Source: an uncultured Paracoccaceae bacterium
GTDB lineage: Bacteria; Pseudomonadota; Alphaproteobacteria; Rhodobacterales; Rhodobacteraceae
Direction: 5' to 3'
Length of the DNA stretch: 64,000 nt
Assembly (NCBI GenBank): GCA_947499725.1
Contig: CANMPK010000002.1
Coordinates: forward strand, 62,001 to 126,000
Notes under the pieces: generated by a model
Told to the model about the DNA's origin: nothing
The model's database searches: none
The model's input: the letters and a program-made list of their open reading frames with translations, nothing else
Part shown: positions 16,035 to 54,537 of the stretch, one piece after another
Layout of the letters: every line of letters starts with the position of its first letter
How positions within the stretch are numbered: the stretch's first letter is position 1
Program-made: the position numbers and the translations under genes

Positions 16035-16081
16035 GATTCAGTACTGTGGACCTTGTCAGTGAAACTCACTACCAAATCGAC

Positions 16082-16801
16082 ATGGTTAACTCATACATCA
16101 TTCATTTAGAACGCAGCACACAACGTAAGCCACTGGTTGAGGACCTAAAGCGTGCTTTACCCAATGCAATCGTTTTGTCAGCGATCGATGGTAAAGAAAT
16201 TTCAGAATTAGAGTTATCGAAAGTTATTCGGCAAAAGGTTTTTGAACCAAAATACCCATTTACACTGGGAAAATCAGAAATTGGCTGCTTTTTGTCTCAC
16301 CGCGCTGCTTGGCAGAAAATTGCAAACGGGCAAGCCGATTTTGGCATCGTTGTAGAAGATGATATTCAAACCGGCCCCGACTTTGATGCCATTTTGCAAG
16401 AAGCACTCGCACTTGCAAACAAAGACTCCCTGATACGCTTCCCAATAAAAAACCGAGAACGCCCTGCACAGGATGTTGTTGTGAACAACATAGCTCATTT
16501 TTTCAGACCAAAGGAAATTGGCCTTACGGCTGCTTTGTATGTTCTCGGAAAGACCGCAGCTGAGAGACTTGTTGATAGATCTGAGTTCATTGATCGTCCT
16601 GTAGATACCTGGCTACAAATGCGCTGGGTCACAGGTGTGGATAGCCTCACAGTTTGGCCAAGTCACATCTCAAGCGCAGCAAGCCTTCACGGCGGCTCTA
16701 CAATACAAGTTAAACAAAGAAATTTATGGCATAAACTAAAGCGTTCGATTTCTCGCAGTCGTTATCGTGCCTATATTACCCGAAAATCCAAAATCTCATG
16801 A
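16082..16801 (+). CDS. glycosyltransferase family 25 (LPS/surface glycan)
   Basis: A 239-residue predicted cytoplasmic glycosyltransferase. Family 25 signatures are present: VNSYIIHLERSTQRK at the N-terminus, GKSEIGCFLSHRAAW, and the acidic metal/nucleotide motif VEDDI. The C-terminal tail is basic. GT25 enzymes usually add galactose or similar sugars to LPS core; donor and acceptor are unknown here. A GTG at 16046 in frame is an alternative start, but family similarity begins at the ATG at 16082, which has a poor ribosome-binding site. The sequence is visibly AT-richer than its neighbours, suggesting transfer. Its last 4 bases overlap the next gene (ATGA). Confidence 0.8.
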   Translation: MVNSYIIHLERSTQRKPLVEDLKRALPNAIVLSAIDGKEISELELSKVIRQKVFEPKYPFTLGKSEIGCFLSHRAAWQKIANGQADFGIVVEDDIQTGPDFDAILQEALALANKDSLIRFPIKNRERPAQDVVVNNIAHFFRPKEIGLTAALYVLGKTAAERLVDRSEFIDRPVDTWLQMRWVTGVDSLTVWPSHISSAASLHGGSTIQVKQRNLWHKLKRSISRSRYRAYITRKSKIS

Positions 16802-17637
16802 TCTATTGTCGTTTTCATGGCCGCACCGGCAATCAAATGTTTCAATACGCTGCGGCACGAGCACTGTCTTTGCGCCATGACGTCGATGTCGTTTTAGATG
16901 ATCGTCGTGCATTGGCACGAGGCGAACGATCCCTGACGCGAGTATTCGACCTAAATCTAGCAAGTTCGACTGACCTACCGCCAGCACAACACACCCATAA
17001 ACTACAATACCATTTGTGGCGGGCTTTTGGCCGAAGCCCCAAATTTTATCGAGAGCCAAAACTTGGTTTTTGCCCCGAAGTGCTAAGCCTTCCGGACAAT
17101 GTATATCTGCACGGGTACTGGCAGTCGGAAAAGTACTTTTCCGATTGTGCCGAAACCATTCGGGACGACTTCAAATTTCCAGAAGCTAAAGGCAAAAACG
17201 CCGAATTGGTCCAACAGATTAGTGAAACGAAAAACGCCACTTCATTGCACCTGCGGCGCGGCGACTATGTCTCTAACGCCTCTCATGTCGTATGTGCACA
17301 GCCCTACTATGACAGGGCTCTTGCAGCTTTGCAGGAAAAGCTTCCAGAAGAGTTCCAAATCTTTGTCTTCTCTGACGACCCAGTCTGGGCCGCGAACAAC
17401 CTGCAGCTCCCGGGAACAACTGTAATCGTCGATCACAACGGTGAAGAAAGCGACTATGCGGATATGCACCTGATGTCTTTGTGCCAACACAACATCATTG
17501 CGAATAGCTCGTTTTCTTGGTGGGGCGCTTGGTTGAACCAAAACGAAAATCGCAATGTCATCGCACCGCAAACTTGGTTTGGTAAAACAAAATTATCCAA
17601 CCCCGATATTTGGGCTCAGGGCTGGACAAAGGTCTAG
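16798..17637 (+). CDS. alpha-1,2-fucosyltransferase family (GT11)
   Basis: A 279-residue enzyme of glycosyltransferase family 11. The N-terminal GRTGNQMFQYAAARALS motif and HLRRGDYV at residues 151-158 (GDP-fucose binding) are diagnostic, as is the C-terminal SSFSWWGAWLN. It probably transfers L-fucose or a related 6-deoxyhexose to a surface glycan. Coupled to the GT25 gene by a 4-base overlap, so the pair likely acts on the same glycan. No GDP-fucose synthesis genes are in the window. It converges with the peroxiredoxin gene with only 3 bases between stops and no visible terminator. Confidence 0.88.
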   Translation: MIYCRFHGRTGNQMFQYAAARALSLRHDVDVVLDDRRALARGERSLTRVFDLNLASSTDLPPAQHTHKLQYHLWRAFGRSPKFYREPKLGFCPEVLSLPDNVYLHGYWQSEKYFSDCAETIRDDFKFPEAKGKNAELVQQISETKNATSLHLRRGDYVSNASHVVCAQPYYDRALAALQEKLPEEFQIFVFSDDPVWAANNLQLPGTTVIVDHNGEESDYADMHLMSLCQHNIIANSSFSWWGAWLNQNENRNVIAPQTWFGKTKLSNPDIWAQGWTKV

Positions 17638-51071: not shown

Positions 51072-51453
51072 GCTTTTGCCCCTTTGGCATAACCTCATGT
51101 CGCCTATTCTTGCCTGCTCGAACTGCAAACCTCAAGAGAAACGATTTGAACGGCCCAGCCCAACACAAAGCCGCAAGATTCTTGCGTAAACCATGCTGGC
51201 CCCGCCATCAATTTATACAAAAATTTACCGCCAGATCAAAATTTGAGCACATAACCCTTTAAATTGTTTCATAAAATTCTATTCGCGCTTTCGACGAAAA
51301 ATTCGCCTAGAAATCCCCTGTTTAAACAGGCATTTTACCTACCAATAAAGAACACTGTGCACAGCTAGAGTGACGGGGCATGACGCACAGTCAAAAACCA
51401 TGCCTCACAAAACGACAAAGAACGGTCAAAAAGACCGAGCAAAGGGGATAGTA
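51072..51453. promoter_or_regulatory. AT-rich intergenic region with two palindromes (mscS-like / AGCS gene)
   Basis: No gene is visible in this 382-base divergent gap. It is markedly AT-rich around 51220-51330 and likely contains both promoters. Two perfect palindromes stand out: CCTGTTTAAACAGG at 51317-51330 and CTGTGCACAG at 51355-51364, about 37 bases apart and 90-137 bases before the AGCS start. They could be operators for the transporter gene. I could not assign -35/-10 boxes. Confidence 0.4.
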
Positions 51454-52878
51454 ATGTCTGTAATCGAAGGATTCTTCGGGATCATTGGTGATCTCACGTG
51501 GGGGTGGGCGCTGATCCCATTCCTGGTGGTCTTTGGTGTGTTCATCACCATCGGCACAAACTTCGTACAATTCCGTTATTTCAAACGCATGTTCCGCGTG
51601 CTGTCTGGCGACGCGCAATCCGCGGATCCAAACACCATCACAGCCCGCGAAGCGCTCTTCGTTTCCGTTGGTGGACGCGTCGGCGGCGGTAACATCGCCG
51701 GTGTCGCTGTCGCGATCACATTGGGTGGACCAGGTGCGGTCTTCTGGATGTGGGCGATTGCCATCGTTGGCATGGCCACAAGCCTTGTGGAATGTTCCTT
51801 GGCACAGGTCTACAAACGCCGCCAAGACGACGGCGCCTTCCGCGGTGGCCCAGCACGCGTCATCCTGCACGGTCTTGGTGAAAACTACCGCTGGCTCGCC
51901 GTGATCTACGCTGTCTGTCTGATCGCAGCCTTCGGCATCGGCTTCCCTGCGTTCCAAGGCAACACAGTGGCCGGCGCAGCAGAAAACGCCTTCGGCCTGA
52001 ACCGCCTCGTCACAGGCGCGCTTTTGACAGCCGGCACAGGCTTCATCGTCTTCGGTGGCATCCAGCGTATCGCGAAAGCCTCTGACATCATCGTTCCGTT
52101 CATGGCGCTTGGCTATATCGCAATGGCGCTGATCGTGATCGTGATCAACATCGCAGACATCCCAGCAGCCTTCGGCAGCATCTTCGCCAACGCATTCGGC
52201 TTCCAAGAAGCAGTCGGCGGCGGCATGGGCGCAGCCATCGCACAGGGTCTACGTCGTGGTCTCTTCTCCAACGAAGCCGGTCTGGGTTCCGCACCAAACG
52301 TTGCGGCGACAGCAGACGTACGTCACCCAATCAGCCAAGGTATCACACAGTCTTTCTCTGTGTTCATCGACACAATCATCATCTGTACATGTACAGCCCT
52401 GATGATCCTTGTCAGTGACGTGTACCAACCGGGCGCAGACATCGATGGTGTTGTGCTGACGCAAAACGCTCTGGTCGAGAACCTCGGCGCATGGACAAGC
52501 TACTTCCTAACCTTCGCGGTTCTGTTGTTTGCTTTCAGCTCCATCATCTACAACTACTACTTGGGTGAAAACGCGATCACCGTGCTGACCAAAAACAGCG
52601 GCGCGATCTTCATCTTCAAGCTGGTTCTGATGGCCATCGTCTTCTTGGGAGCCTCAGCCCCAGGTGCCACAGCGATCTTCTTCTTCTCCGATCCGCTGAT
52701 GGGCGTTCTGGCCATCGTCAACCTTTTGGCTCTGATGATGCTCTTCCCAATCCTGCGCCGCGTTCTGGCCGACTTCGACGAGCAACGCAAAGCAGGCGTG
52801 GCACGCCCAGTGTTCGACCCAGCCAAGTTCCCAGACTTGGACGTAGATCACACTGCATGGACACAAAAAGCCGACTAA
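51454..52878 (+). CDS. alanine/glycine:cation symporter (AGCS family)
   Basis: A 474-residue polytopic inner-membrane carrier that imports alanine or glycine with Na+. The AGCS signature is visible in ALFVSVGGRVGGGNIAGVAVAITLGGPGAVFWMW. GLRRGLFSNEAGLGSAPNVAAT is the second conserved block. About ten hydrophobic segments. Start at 51454 with AAAGGGG upstream; the frame is open to 51370 without family similarity. Codon use is biased toward C-ending codons, suggesting good expression. Possible link with the one-carbon/glycine operon at 19.5-25 kb is speculative. Confidence 0.92.
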   Translation: MSVIEGFFGIIGDLTWGWALIPFLVVFGVFITIGTNFVQFRYFKRMFRVLSGDAQSADPNTITAREALFVSVGGRVGGGNIAGVAVAITLGGPGAVFWMWAIAIVGMATSLVECSLAQVYKRRQDDGAFRGGPARVILHGLGENYRWLAVIYAVCLIAAFGIGFPAFQGNTVAGAAENAFGLNRLVTGALLTAGTGFIVFGGIQRIAKASDIIVPFMALGYIAMALIVIVINIADIPAAFGSIFANAFGFQEAVGGGMGAAIAQGLRRGLFSNEAGLGSAPNVAATADVRHPISQGITQSFSVFIDTIIICTCTALMILVSDVYQPGADIDGVVLTQNALVENLGAWTSYFLTFAVLLFAFSSIIYNYYLGENAITVLTKNSGAIFIFKLVLMAIVFLGASAPGATAIFFFSDPLMGVLAIVNLLALMMLFPILRRVLADFDEQRKAGVARPVFDPAKFPDLDVDHTAWTQKAD

Positions 52879-52901
52879 CCTCGGCCCATAGCAAAACAAT
52901 G

Positions 52902-52929
52902 AAACGCGGCAGACCCCTGCCGCGTTTTT
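52902..52929 (+). terminator. terminator after the AGCS gene
   Basis: AAACGCGGCAG pairs with CTGCCGCGTTT across an ACCC loop and is followed by TTC and TTTT. It begins 24 bases after the stop. Confidence 0.85.
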
Positions 52930-52967
52930 CTTTTGGCTGAAATATGAACCAGCCCGGCCCCGCCCGG

Positions 52968-52997
52968 GCATCGCCCGACCTCCCCCAGGAGGGCGAT
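52968..52997. repeat. REP-like palindrome between AGCS and DUF4041 genes
   Basis: ATCGCCC pairs with GGGCGAT around a CCTCC-CCCA-GGAGG core; a GCCCGG/CCGGGC stem precedes it. It resembles the 839-870 element and lies between the AGCS terminator and the end of the DUF4041/GIY-YIG gene. May act as a bidirectional terminator or a dispersed repeat. Confidence 0.4.
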
Positions 52998-53010
52998 TTT
53001 GCATTTTACT

Positions 53011-54345
53011 TCAGATAGCTAACGGTAGAGCCTCTTCCTCGCTCTCGACGATGGACTGCAGCTTTTCATTCCGGCGCGCCATGGTTTCATGCCATTCTTG
53101 TGCTTCCCTGTCTTGGAAGAAATCCGCATCTGGAGCGAGCTTTGCCACAGCTTCTTCAACATCATTCAGCGAGACACGAAAGAACTCCTTACGCATATTC
53201 GCCATATTCACGCGCTTTTCAGAAAACTCTTTGTGAAGCGCTGCCTCTAAAGCAGGGGCCTCCTCAGAATAGATCATCGCATGAGTGTCAAAGCCGAACG
53301 GAACACTAGCATCTCCGAGTTCTTTCACCCGGTCCGTTGGGTCGAGGCGGCGCGTCAATCCAATTTTGACCATGTCTTCACCGAAGGATCCGACATTCGA
53401 GATGACATAGACAAATCCAGACTTGGTCATCTCCGCCATCGAACGCGCACGCTCGGTATTGTCATGCGCCTCCTGCAAGGCCGCTTCCAACTCTTCGATC
53501 TTTCGTTTCATTTCTGCGCTGGTGTTGCCTCCGCTCACCTCTTTGCGCGCCTTTTCAAGCAAAGCTTGAAACTTCATCTCTTCTTTCTCGGCTGCCCGCG
53601 CTTCGGCAAGAAGTTTTTTCTCTTCCCTTTCAGCTCTCGCTATCTCTGCACGTTCTTCTTTTTCGATCTTTAACTGTTCGCGATATTCATGGGTGCAATG
53701 CAACTCATCCAATTTCAAGGCAACATATTCATCGTTGATGAACAGGTTCATAGACGTATTCTCTTTCGAGATGGCTTTTGCTGAATTCAGAATTCGTTTT
53801 TCCATGGCAACCACATTGTTCCAGCGTGTGTTGGCGATGGCCGCTTCACATTCGTTATTAAATGCTCTCAGTGTTAAGCGCACCTGACGATTTATCATTG
53901 CTTGCCCCTTGGAGCGACTGCCATCAACAGTCCAATCAGTAGGGCACATAGTAGCTTGTTTTGCTCGAACCATGTCCTTTTGCCGGCTACGAAGCGCCTT
54001 GATTTGCTCTTTGAATTCCTCACTATCTCCAAACTCAAAATGAGGTTCATAAACACCAAGCTCAGAAAATGATAAGCGTTCGTCATAAACGGCAACCTTT
54101 TCGGTAAGCCGATCTAGATACCTCTTTTTTTCAGCATAAGTTTTCCGAAGTTTGTCTTGATCTCCTTCAAGGCTCAGCTTCTCACTCTTTAGGCGATCTA
54201 CTTCGTTTTCTATCGATTGTATCTCAGAGTATTTCTCAAGCTCCAACTTAGCTTTTGAAAGTTTCCGCTTCCCTAATAGCCATAAAATAAAAAACAAAGG
54301 CGCACCGATAAACCAAACCAATGCCATAATAAAAAAAGGGTCCAT
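53011..54345 (-). CDS. membrane-anchored DUF4041/GIY-YIG nuclease, SNIPE-like anti-phage candidate
   Basis: A 444-residue protein. Residues 5-25 form a hydrophobic N-terminal anchor. A long coiled coil runs about 27-90. A DUF4041-type domain follows, roughly 100-235 (TVDGSRSKGQAM, RQVRLTLRAFNNECEAAI). A second charged coiled coil is at 225-300. The C-terminal GIY-YIG (T5orf172-like) nuclease is at 310-400: FVYVISN, VKIGLTRR, the probable catalytic Glu367 in LEAALHKEF, and RKEFFRVS. This is the architecture of the recently reported SNIPE family, membrane nucleases that cut phage DNA as it enters. The sequence is AT-rich compared with its neighbours, and it is a lone gene between conserved metabolic genes. 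Activity is inferred, not shown. Confidence 0.85.
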   Translation of the reverse strand: MDPFFIMALVWFIGAPLFFILWLLGKRKLSKAKLELEKYSEIQSIENEVDRLKSEKLSLEGDQDKLRKTYAEKKRYLDRLTEKVAVYDERLSFSELGVYEPHFEFGDSEEFKEQIKALRSRQKDMVRAKQATMCPTDWTVDGSRSKGQAMINRQVRLTLRAFNNECEAAIANTRWNNVVAMEKRILNSAKAISKENTSMNLFINDEYVALKLDELHCTHEYREQLKIEKEERAEIARAEREEKKLLAEARAAEKEEMKFQALLEKARKEVSGGNTSAEMKRKIEELEAALQEAHDNTERARSMAEMTKSGFVYVISNVGSFGEDMVKIGLTRRLDPTDRVKELGDASVPFGFDTHAMIYSEEAPALEAALHKEFSEKRVNMANMRKEFFRVSLNDVEEAVAKLAPDADFFQDREAQEWHETMARRNEKLQSIVESEEEALPLAI

Positions 54346-54408
54346 AAATCACCTAAAGTACTCAAACAAATCTTGGTGACGTTACTAGGTGCCCGCTTTC
54401 AGAACAAT

Positions 54409-54471
54409 CATGTAGGAAAGTCAGTTTCCCTCAATTGTACATTTCAGCCGTCGAAAGGGGCGAATTGCCAC
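54409..54471. repeat. dispersed structured repeat, copy B
   Basis: Read on the plus strand it has CATGTAGG, then GTACATTTCAG, GAAA, and CGAATTGCCAC in the same order as copy A (11301-11358), with about five extra bases in the loop. It lies 64 bases upstream of the DUF4041/GIY-YIG start (minus strand). Relative orientation to the adjacent gene is opposite to that of copy A, which argues against a shared promoter role. The remaining gap 54346-54537 shows no gene. Confidence 0.5.
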
Positions 54472-54537
54472 CTTTCTGAAGTGTTAAGGCTCCGCCCACA
54501 GGACAGCAAACCACGCAACGGTTTCGCCGCGAAACGC

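What the first reader, a model, noticed from the sequence alone, without database searches (positions are those of the whole stretch)
53011..54345. Lone AT-rich DUF4041/GIY-YIG membrane nuclease: SNIPE-like phage-entry defence candidate
Seen: N-terminal hydrophobic anchor, two coiled coils, a DUF4041-type core and a C-terminal GIY-YIG nuclease with plausible catalytic residues, in one 444-aa gene whose base use is AT-richer than the flanking AGCS symporter and SDR/crotonase genes. Known, from memory: the SNIPE family joins these parts and cuts phage DNA during injection at the membrane. Inference: this is a Rhodobacteraceae member and may guard a different injection route than the enterobacterial one. 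It is the best candidate for an unusual defence system here.
Basis: partly seen in the sequence, partly recalled or inferred. Interest (0 to 1): 0.75.

Follow-up and report, generated by a model that had tools for sequence, protein, structure and literature searches.

The report
SNIPE-family phage-entry nuclease gene
This gene encodes a full-length relative of SNIPE, a known membrane-anchored bacterial enzyme that cuts virus DNA as it is injected; it is an ordinary new member of that family, found here in bacteria that appear to lack the sugar transporter SNIPE docks to in E. coli.

Summary
The 444-codon ORF at 53011-54345 (-) has an N-terminal hydrophobic anchor, DUF4041 and a C-terminal T5orf172/GIY-YIG nuclease. 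Against a phage-borne PD-lambda-1 protein that carries all nine residues I checked from the 2026 Nature paper, it is identical at 205 of 440 aligned positions and keeps the catalytic glutamate (E414 = E367). The gene is patchy: 0 of 8 congeners have it, and 11 of 394 family genomes, own included, have DUF4041 over the cut-off. In 6 of 8 congeners the MscS and crotonase genes lie within 360 bases, with neither SNIPE nor AGCS between. The gene is AT-rich. 'A different injection route' gains support: no ManZ-type EIID in any of 394 family genomes, no ManY-type EII-Sor in the own genome; but defence without ManYZ is already published. AGCS is not a conserved neighbour (0 of 38 loci). Nothing was tested experimentally. 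New member of a known kind, modest interest.

The parts
53011..54345 (-). SNIPE (PD-Lambda-1) gene, 444 aa
54274..54330 (-). hydrophobic membrane anchor, residues 6-24
   Evidence: Kyte-Doolittle 2.46 over 19 residues, 0 of 1000 shuffles reach it; 6 K/R and 3 D/E follow in residues 25-45
54061..54255 (-). helical N-terminal stalk, residues 31-95
   Evidence: helices 3-40 and 45-95 in the model; residues 31-85 poorly conserved (37.5% mean identity)
53713..53877 (-). DUF4041 domain, residues 157-211
   Evidence: Pfam PF13250, 63 bits; pLDDT 86-95 by blocks of ten over residues 151-210
53431..53712 (-). long helix between DUF4041 and nuclease, residues 212-305
   Evidence: model helices 205-271 and 277-306; K305 and I308 of the E. 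coli protein align here (Q260, L263), T319 aligns with a gap
53140..53418 (-). T5orf172/GIY-YIG nuclease domain, residues 310-402
   Evidence: Pfam PF10544, 65.5 bits; residues 306-402 are the most conserved of seven regions, 77.5% mean identity
53245..53247 (-). codon of predicted catalytic Glu367
   Evidence: aligns with E414 of E. coli SNIPE, whose alanine mutant lost defence (PMC13190303); E in 36 of 36
51129..54537 (.). segment with AGCS and SNIPE genes, not found between the MscS and crotonase genes in 6 of 8 congeners (in the other two the MscS gene is not beside crotonase)
51370..52878 (+). AGCS (Na:alanine) symporter gene, neighbour; not shown to belong to the system
   Evidence: Pfam PF01235; no AGCS hit in 38 homologue loci; GC3 67.2%, unlike SNIPE

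Best explanation
[quoted passage not shown] The N-terminal helix anchors it in the inner membrane. DUF4041 and the following helix contact DNA and the tape measure protein of an injecting siphovirus-type phage. The C-terminal GIY-YIG nuclease, with Glu367 as a catalytic residue, cuts the phage DNA as it enters. Shown here by sequence: domain content, a predicted anchor, the equivalent of the catalytic residue, family membership, patchy distribution, and no ManZ-type (family) or ManY-type (own genome) homologue found. Shown by others for the E. coli protein only: membrane location, cutting during injection, and tape measure binding (the last for a mutant form). Inferred: that the window protein does the same, with a partner other than ManYZ or with none.
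For: PADLOC PD-Lambda-1 PDLC03977 E 3.6e-168 over residues 53-431 and PDLC03976 E 4.7e-160 over 28-436. DUF4041 and T5orf172 over cut-off. XSB42081, annotated PD-lambda-1 in Escherichia phage PhiR26_1, has E223, N250, L253, W257, E264, K305, I308, T319 and E414 at the numbers used in PMC13190303, so it serves as the reference; the window protein is identical at 205 of 440 aligned positions and keeps E414 as E367. G310, Y313, K327, G329, R333 and E367 of the nuclease and R160, N163 and E165 of DUF4041 are the same in 36 of 36. Mean identity to the window protein is 36.9% for residues 1-30, 71% for DUF4041 and 77.5% for 306-402, the order the paper reports. Patchiness and site. Carried by phages (34 records; 318 viral stretches) and plasmids (184 records at 1e-20).
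Against: No experiment on this protein. More than half of the aligned residues differ from E. coli SNIPE; of the nine residues checked, N250, W257, K305 and I308 differ (A209, H216, Q260, L263) and T319 has no counterpart. The model is moderate (mean pLDDT 77.4, pTM 0.41), with low confidence over much of residues 301-360 in the nuclease. It gave no PDB match with E <= 0.001 and one viral match with E <= 0.001. No NCBIfam model matched at E 0.1.
Confidence: 0.9

Rival explanations
1. A variant of the main reading: SNIPE by descent, retuned to another inner-membrane entry protein of these hosts, with the N-terminus as the docking part.
For: No EIID (ManZ type) match in any of 394 family genomes, own included (own), and no EII-Sor (ManY type) match in the own genome; E. 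coli, B. subtilis and L. lactis ring as controls in each of these searches. Residues 1-30 are the least conserved of seven regions (36.9%). Many alphaproteobacterial homologues share an MDP...LVW...P..LW-like pattern (read by eye). The paper suggests the N-terminus as an adapter.
Against: The paper shows ManYZ-independent defence, put down to tape measure contact, so no partner is needed. A shared pattern may only reflect a common membrane anchor. No partner was identified; Pfam at E 1 on residues 1-91 gave six weak matches, all below cut-off.
Confidence: 0.35
2. The adjacent AGCS symporter is SNIPE's docking partner, brought along in the same insertion as a two-gene module.
For: Neither gene is found between MscS and crotonase in 6 of 8 congeners.
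Against: No AGCS hit in any of 38 homologue loci (flanks of up to 6 kb, shorter at contig ends). The two genes differ in composition (GC3 67.2% and 48.3%) and strand.
Confidence: 0.03
3. A selfish or homing GIY-YIG endonuclease rather than a defence protein.
For: GIY-YIG/T5orf172 domains are common in mobile endonucleases (recalled); the gene is patchy.
Against: Anchor and DUF4041 are both present. PADLOC PD-Lambda-1 covers residues 53-431, most of the soluble part. The gene lies between genes; no interrupted gene was seen in the site comparison.
Confidence: 0.04
4. A decayed or inactive copy.
For: Some homologue loci give only partial ORFs away from contig ends (L038 and L040) or a split ORF (L090), so loss seems to occur. 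L039 and L089 end near a contig end and do not count.
Against: Here the ORF is whole, and it has the nuclease and DUF4041 residues that are the same in 36 of 36 sequences.
Confidence: 0.04

Closest known systems
SNIPE / PD-lambda-1 of Escherichia coli (PMC13190303; that its first report is PMC9519451 is recalled); sequence used: XSB42081 of Escherichia phage PhiR26_1
   Same: Same order of parts: N-terminal anchor, helical stalk, DUF4041, long helix, GIY-YIG nuclease; 205 of 440 aligned residues identical; catalytic E414 = E367.
   Different: Shorter (444 against 500 aa, mostly in the N-terminal stalk and the C-terminal tail); W257 is H216, N250 is A209; no ManZ-type EIID found in the host family; lies on a 622-kb contig among metabolic genes, with no phage gene among the four neighbours scanned.
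phrog_1847 (phage protein family of unknown function)
   Same: Best phage family, E 1.7e-130 over residues 35-428.
   Different: Unnamed family of phage-borne proteins.
PDC-S57 in PADLOC
   Same: Matches the nuclease end, residues 306-414, E 5.2e-20.
   Different: The match covers neither the anchor nor DUF4041.
Zorya and Kiwa (membrane-linked entry defences; from PMC13190303 part 5, and passages of PMC12904381)
   Same: Act at the membrane during phage entry.
   Different: Multi-gene systems with other sensors (partly recalled); not searched for here.

Membership tests
SNIPE (PD-lambda-1) | Whole-protein match to the PD-Lambda-1 profiles | tested here: met
   PDLC03977 E 3.6e-168, PDLC03976 E 4.7e-160
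SNIPE (PD-lambda-1) | DUF4041 domain in the middle | tested here: met
   PF13250, residues 157-211, 63 bits, cut-off 27
SNIPE (PD-lambda-1) | C-terminal GIY-YIG nuclease with catalytic Glu (E414) | tested here: met
   PF10544 residues 310-402; E367 aligned to E414; E in 36 of 36. Activity not tested
SNIPE (PD-lambda-1) | N-terminal membrane anchor (in the paper 59% of homologues have one TM, 7% two, 34% none) | tested here: met
   Predicted only: hydropathy peak at residues 6-24; 29 of 34 full-length homologues pass a hydropathy threshold of 1.6 in the first 110 residues
SNIPE (PD-lambda-1) | Defence against phage, lost with the catalytic mutant | not testable with these tools
   needs a phage challenge
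SNIPE (PD-lambda-1) | Binding to tape measure protein | not testable with these tools
   needs crosslinking or proximity labelling
SNIPE (PD-lambda-1) | Association with ManYZ (E. coli protein; not required for all of its defence, so not defining) | tested here: not met
   No EII-Sor and no EIID match in the own genome; no EIID match in 394 family genomes

The most novel reading that the evidence does not exclude
In this bacterial family, where no ManZ-type permease component was found, SNIPE has a different docking partner: its N-terminal module reads a so far unknown inner-membrane entry protein used by siphoviruses of these hosts. SNIPE N-termini could then serve as bait to find phage entry routes in bacteria where none is known.
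Probability: 0.3. Interest if true: 0.55.

Novelty: new member of a known kind. Interest (0 to 1): 0.25.

Why it matters
It is a full-length SNIPE in a family where none of 394 genomes searched has a ManZ-type permease component, so the E. coli ManYZ docking model cannot hold here as it stands. It offers a natural case for asking whether tape measure contact is enough or whether other entry proteins are used. Otherwise it adds one member to a published, widespread family.

Tried and rejected
AGCS as partner: rejected. 0 of 38 homologue loci have an AGCS hit (flanks of up to 6 kb, shorter at contig ends), and its composition is unlike that of SNIPE.

Gene transfer agent as target: I asked whether SNIPE avoids genomes with a GTA/siphovirus tail marker (TIGR02218; its link to GTA is recalled, and several genomes have up to six matches, so it probably hits prophages too). 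315 of 394 family genomes have it, and so do 10 of the 11 genomes with DUF4041 over the cut-off; the one without is the window's own. No sign of exclusion; dropped.

Defence genes around homologues: ten neighbour proteins from nine homologue loci, out of the ORFs of 38 loci, gave no PADLOC match at 1e-10, so no defence island was shown. One protein of each of three recurring neighbour families was scanned with Pfam: a strawberry-notch type helicase, a Toprim_3/DUF7146 protein and a YspA-type SLOG protein, which I recall from alphaproteobacterial mobile elements.

Insertion ends: no shared word of 9 bases between the MscS-AGCS and SNIPE-crotonase spacers or between the AGCS-SNIPE and SNIPE-crotonase spacers; two 9-base words are shared by the MscS-AGCS and AGCS-SNIPE spacers, short enough to be chance. 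The three spacers gave no blastn match at 0.01 in the 8 congener stretches. No tRNA gene in the window. No mark of a specific integration mechanism.

Structure: no meaningful PDB relative by sequence (best E 0.07), no PDB fold match with E <= 0.001, one viral fold match with E <= 0.001. Residues 1-91 gave six weak Pfam matches, all below cut-off. NCBIfam gave nothing at E 0.1.

Literature: DUF4041 (3 papers); SNIPE with phage, tape measure and nuclease (2 papers); PD-lambda-1 with Rhodobacter (0 papers). Of PMC13190303 I read the outline, parts 1-5 of 13 and searched passages; of PMC9519451 and PMC12904381 only searched passages. A word-start search for 'Rhodobacter' and 'alphaproteobacteria' finds neither in the main text of PMC13190303; its supplements were not seen.

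Full report
OBSERVATION. The ORF at 53011-54345 on the minus strand is whole, with an ATG start and 444 codons. Pfam gives DUF4041 (157-211) and T5orf172 (310-402), with an overlapping MUG113 match, all over their cut-offs. A hydrophobic stretch at residues 6-24 has a mean hydropathy of 2.46, which 0 of 1000 shuffles reach. GC3 of 48.3% is the second lowest of 42 mechanically picked, non-overlapping window ORFs of 200 aa or more.

WHAT IT IS. PADLOC's PD-Lambda-1 models match at E 3.6e-168 and 4.7e-160. PD-lambda-1 is the provisional name of SNIPE (PMC13190303). As reference I took XSB42081, annotated PD-lambda-1 in Escherichia phage PhiR26_1. It carries E223, N250, L253, W257, E264, K305, I308, T319 and E414 at the numbers the paper uses, which I take to identify it as the paper's SNIPE or a near copy. 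Against it the window protein is identical at 205 of 440 aligned positions. Of the other eight, E223, L253 and E264 are kept (E182, L212, E223), N250, W257, K305 and I308 differ (A209, H216, Q260, L263), and T319 falls in a gap. At the W257 position 19 of 36 sequences have R and 10 have H, in line with the paper's remark that W257R is frequent among homologues.

FAMILY PATTERN. A scan of genome contigs gave 39 loci. For 38 an ORF matching the window protein was found (L046 was lost at this step); 34 of these are 400 aa or longer. Mean identity to the window protein over these 34 plus the E. coli protein is 36.9% for residues 1-30, 37.5% for 31-85, 62.5% for 86-156, 71% for 157-211 (DUF4041), 62% for 212-305, 77.5% for 306-402 and 54.2% for 403-444. 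The paper reports the same order: nuclease highest, DUF4041 less, N-terminus very low. 29 of the 34 pass a hydropathy threshold of 1.6 in the first 110 residues; L023, L037, L042, L043 and L044 do not. The paper describes anchorless members too.

DISTRIBUTION. A protein search over 120 genomes, own included, found matches in 4. Only the own match is full-length; the other three are partial (E 1.4e-20, 9.7e-11, 8.9e-5), and none of the 8 other genomes of the genus has one. In a sample of 394 family genomes, own included, 12 match DUF4041 at E <= 0.001 and 11 over the cut-off. Of these 11, 9 have one ORF that aligns over about 400 residues or more; L089 covers residues 1-232 near a contig end, and L090 is split into two ORFs. 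The twelfth genome's match and a second, weak match in G217 (L093, L094) gave no blastp hit to the window protein. In 6 of 8 congeners the crotonase gene is followed by the MscS gene after 47 to 355 bases, measured between alignment ends, where the window has 3.4 kb with AGCS and SNIPE; in three of the six the spacer of 321-355 bases may hold a small gene of its own. In the other two the neighbourhood differs: L081 has the FAD gene beside crotonase and no MscS match, and L075 has neither in the 18 kb examined. No SNIPE or AGCS match at 1e-8 was seen in any of the 8 stretches. Homologues occur in 34 phage records, all below 60% identity, 184 plasmid records at 1e-20 and 318 stretches of viral contigs, of which 80 were kept. 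Among 11 homologue genes whose composition I printed, several (for example L009, L016, L019, L024) are also AT-richer than their surroundings, while L012, L014, L026 and L041 are much closer to theirs. The gene evidently moves between genomes, but no integration signature was found here.

HOW IT WORKS. By homology: inner-membrane anchor; DUF4041 plus helix contacting DNA and the tape measure protein; GIY-YIG cutting of incoming DNA. For the E. coli protein the paper's authors give the evidence; crosslinking to the tape measure protein was seen with an enhanced mutant and not with the wild type. For the window protein all of this is inferred. The ManYZ association cannot hold here as it stands: no EII-Sor or EIID match in the own genome and no EIID match in 394 family genomes, 347 of them at least 90% complete and at most 5% contaminated; E. 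coli, B. subtilis and L. lactis ring as controls in each search. EII-Sor was not searched across the family. As the paper reports ManYZ-independent defence, put down to tape measure contact, the simplest reading is that this protein works through the tape measure alone; an unknown partner is possible.

MODEL. AlphaFold2 on a 27-row alignment (P0001 and 26 of the 39 loci) gave mean pLDDT 77.4 and pTM 0.41, confident in DUF4041 and poor over much of residues 301-360. Fold searches added little: no PDB match with E <= 0.001, and one viral match, E 1.2e-16, to a siphovirus protein labelled helicase.

VERDICT. Observation confirmed, interpretation supported, new member of a known kind. What could become more interesting is the apparent absence of the E. 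coli docking partner from the host family.

Noticed in passing
window 16046-17637 (+): Two AT-rich genes beside the PNPase gene: a family 25 glycosyltransferase (LPS type, lowest GC3 of the 42 ORFs) and a family 11 glycosyltransferase (third lowest); they look like another acquired, surface-sugar segment.
   Followed up: partly
L077, L078, L080, spacer between MscS and crotonase: In three congeners the spot holds a spacer of 321-355 bases that reads by eye like a small HNH-type gene; not tested.
   Followed up: no
own genome G000: No match to the tail marker TIGR02218, which 315 of 394 family genomes have; the genome may have lost its gene transfer agent (the link of this marker to GTA is recalled).
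   Followed up: no
L012, L014, L015, L032, L035 (right of SNIPE): A related protein of about 1180 aa, in L012 a strawberry-notch type helicase, begins about 2.4 kb to the right of SNIPE in five loci; Toprim_3/DUF7146 and YspA-type SLOG relatives recur beside it across the group (with L010, L013, L017). SNIPE may ride on a shared mobile element there (one protein per family scanned).
   Followed up: partly
L042, L044: Homologues in Nocardiopsis and Micromonospora begin (from the first possible start codon) with proline- and tryptophan-rich stretches and fail the hydropathy test for an anchor.
   Followed up: no
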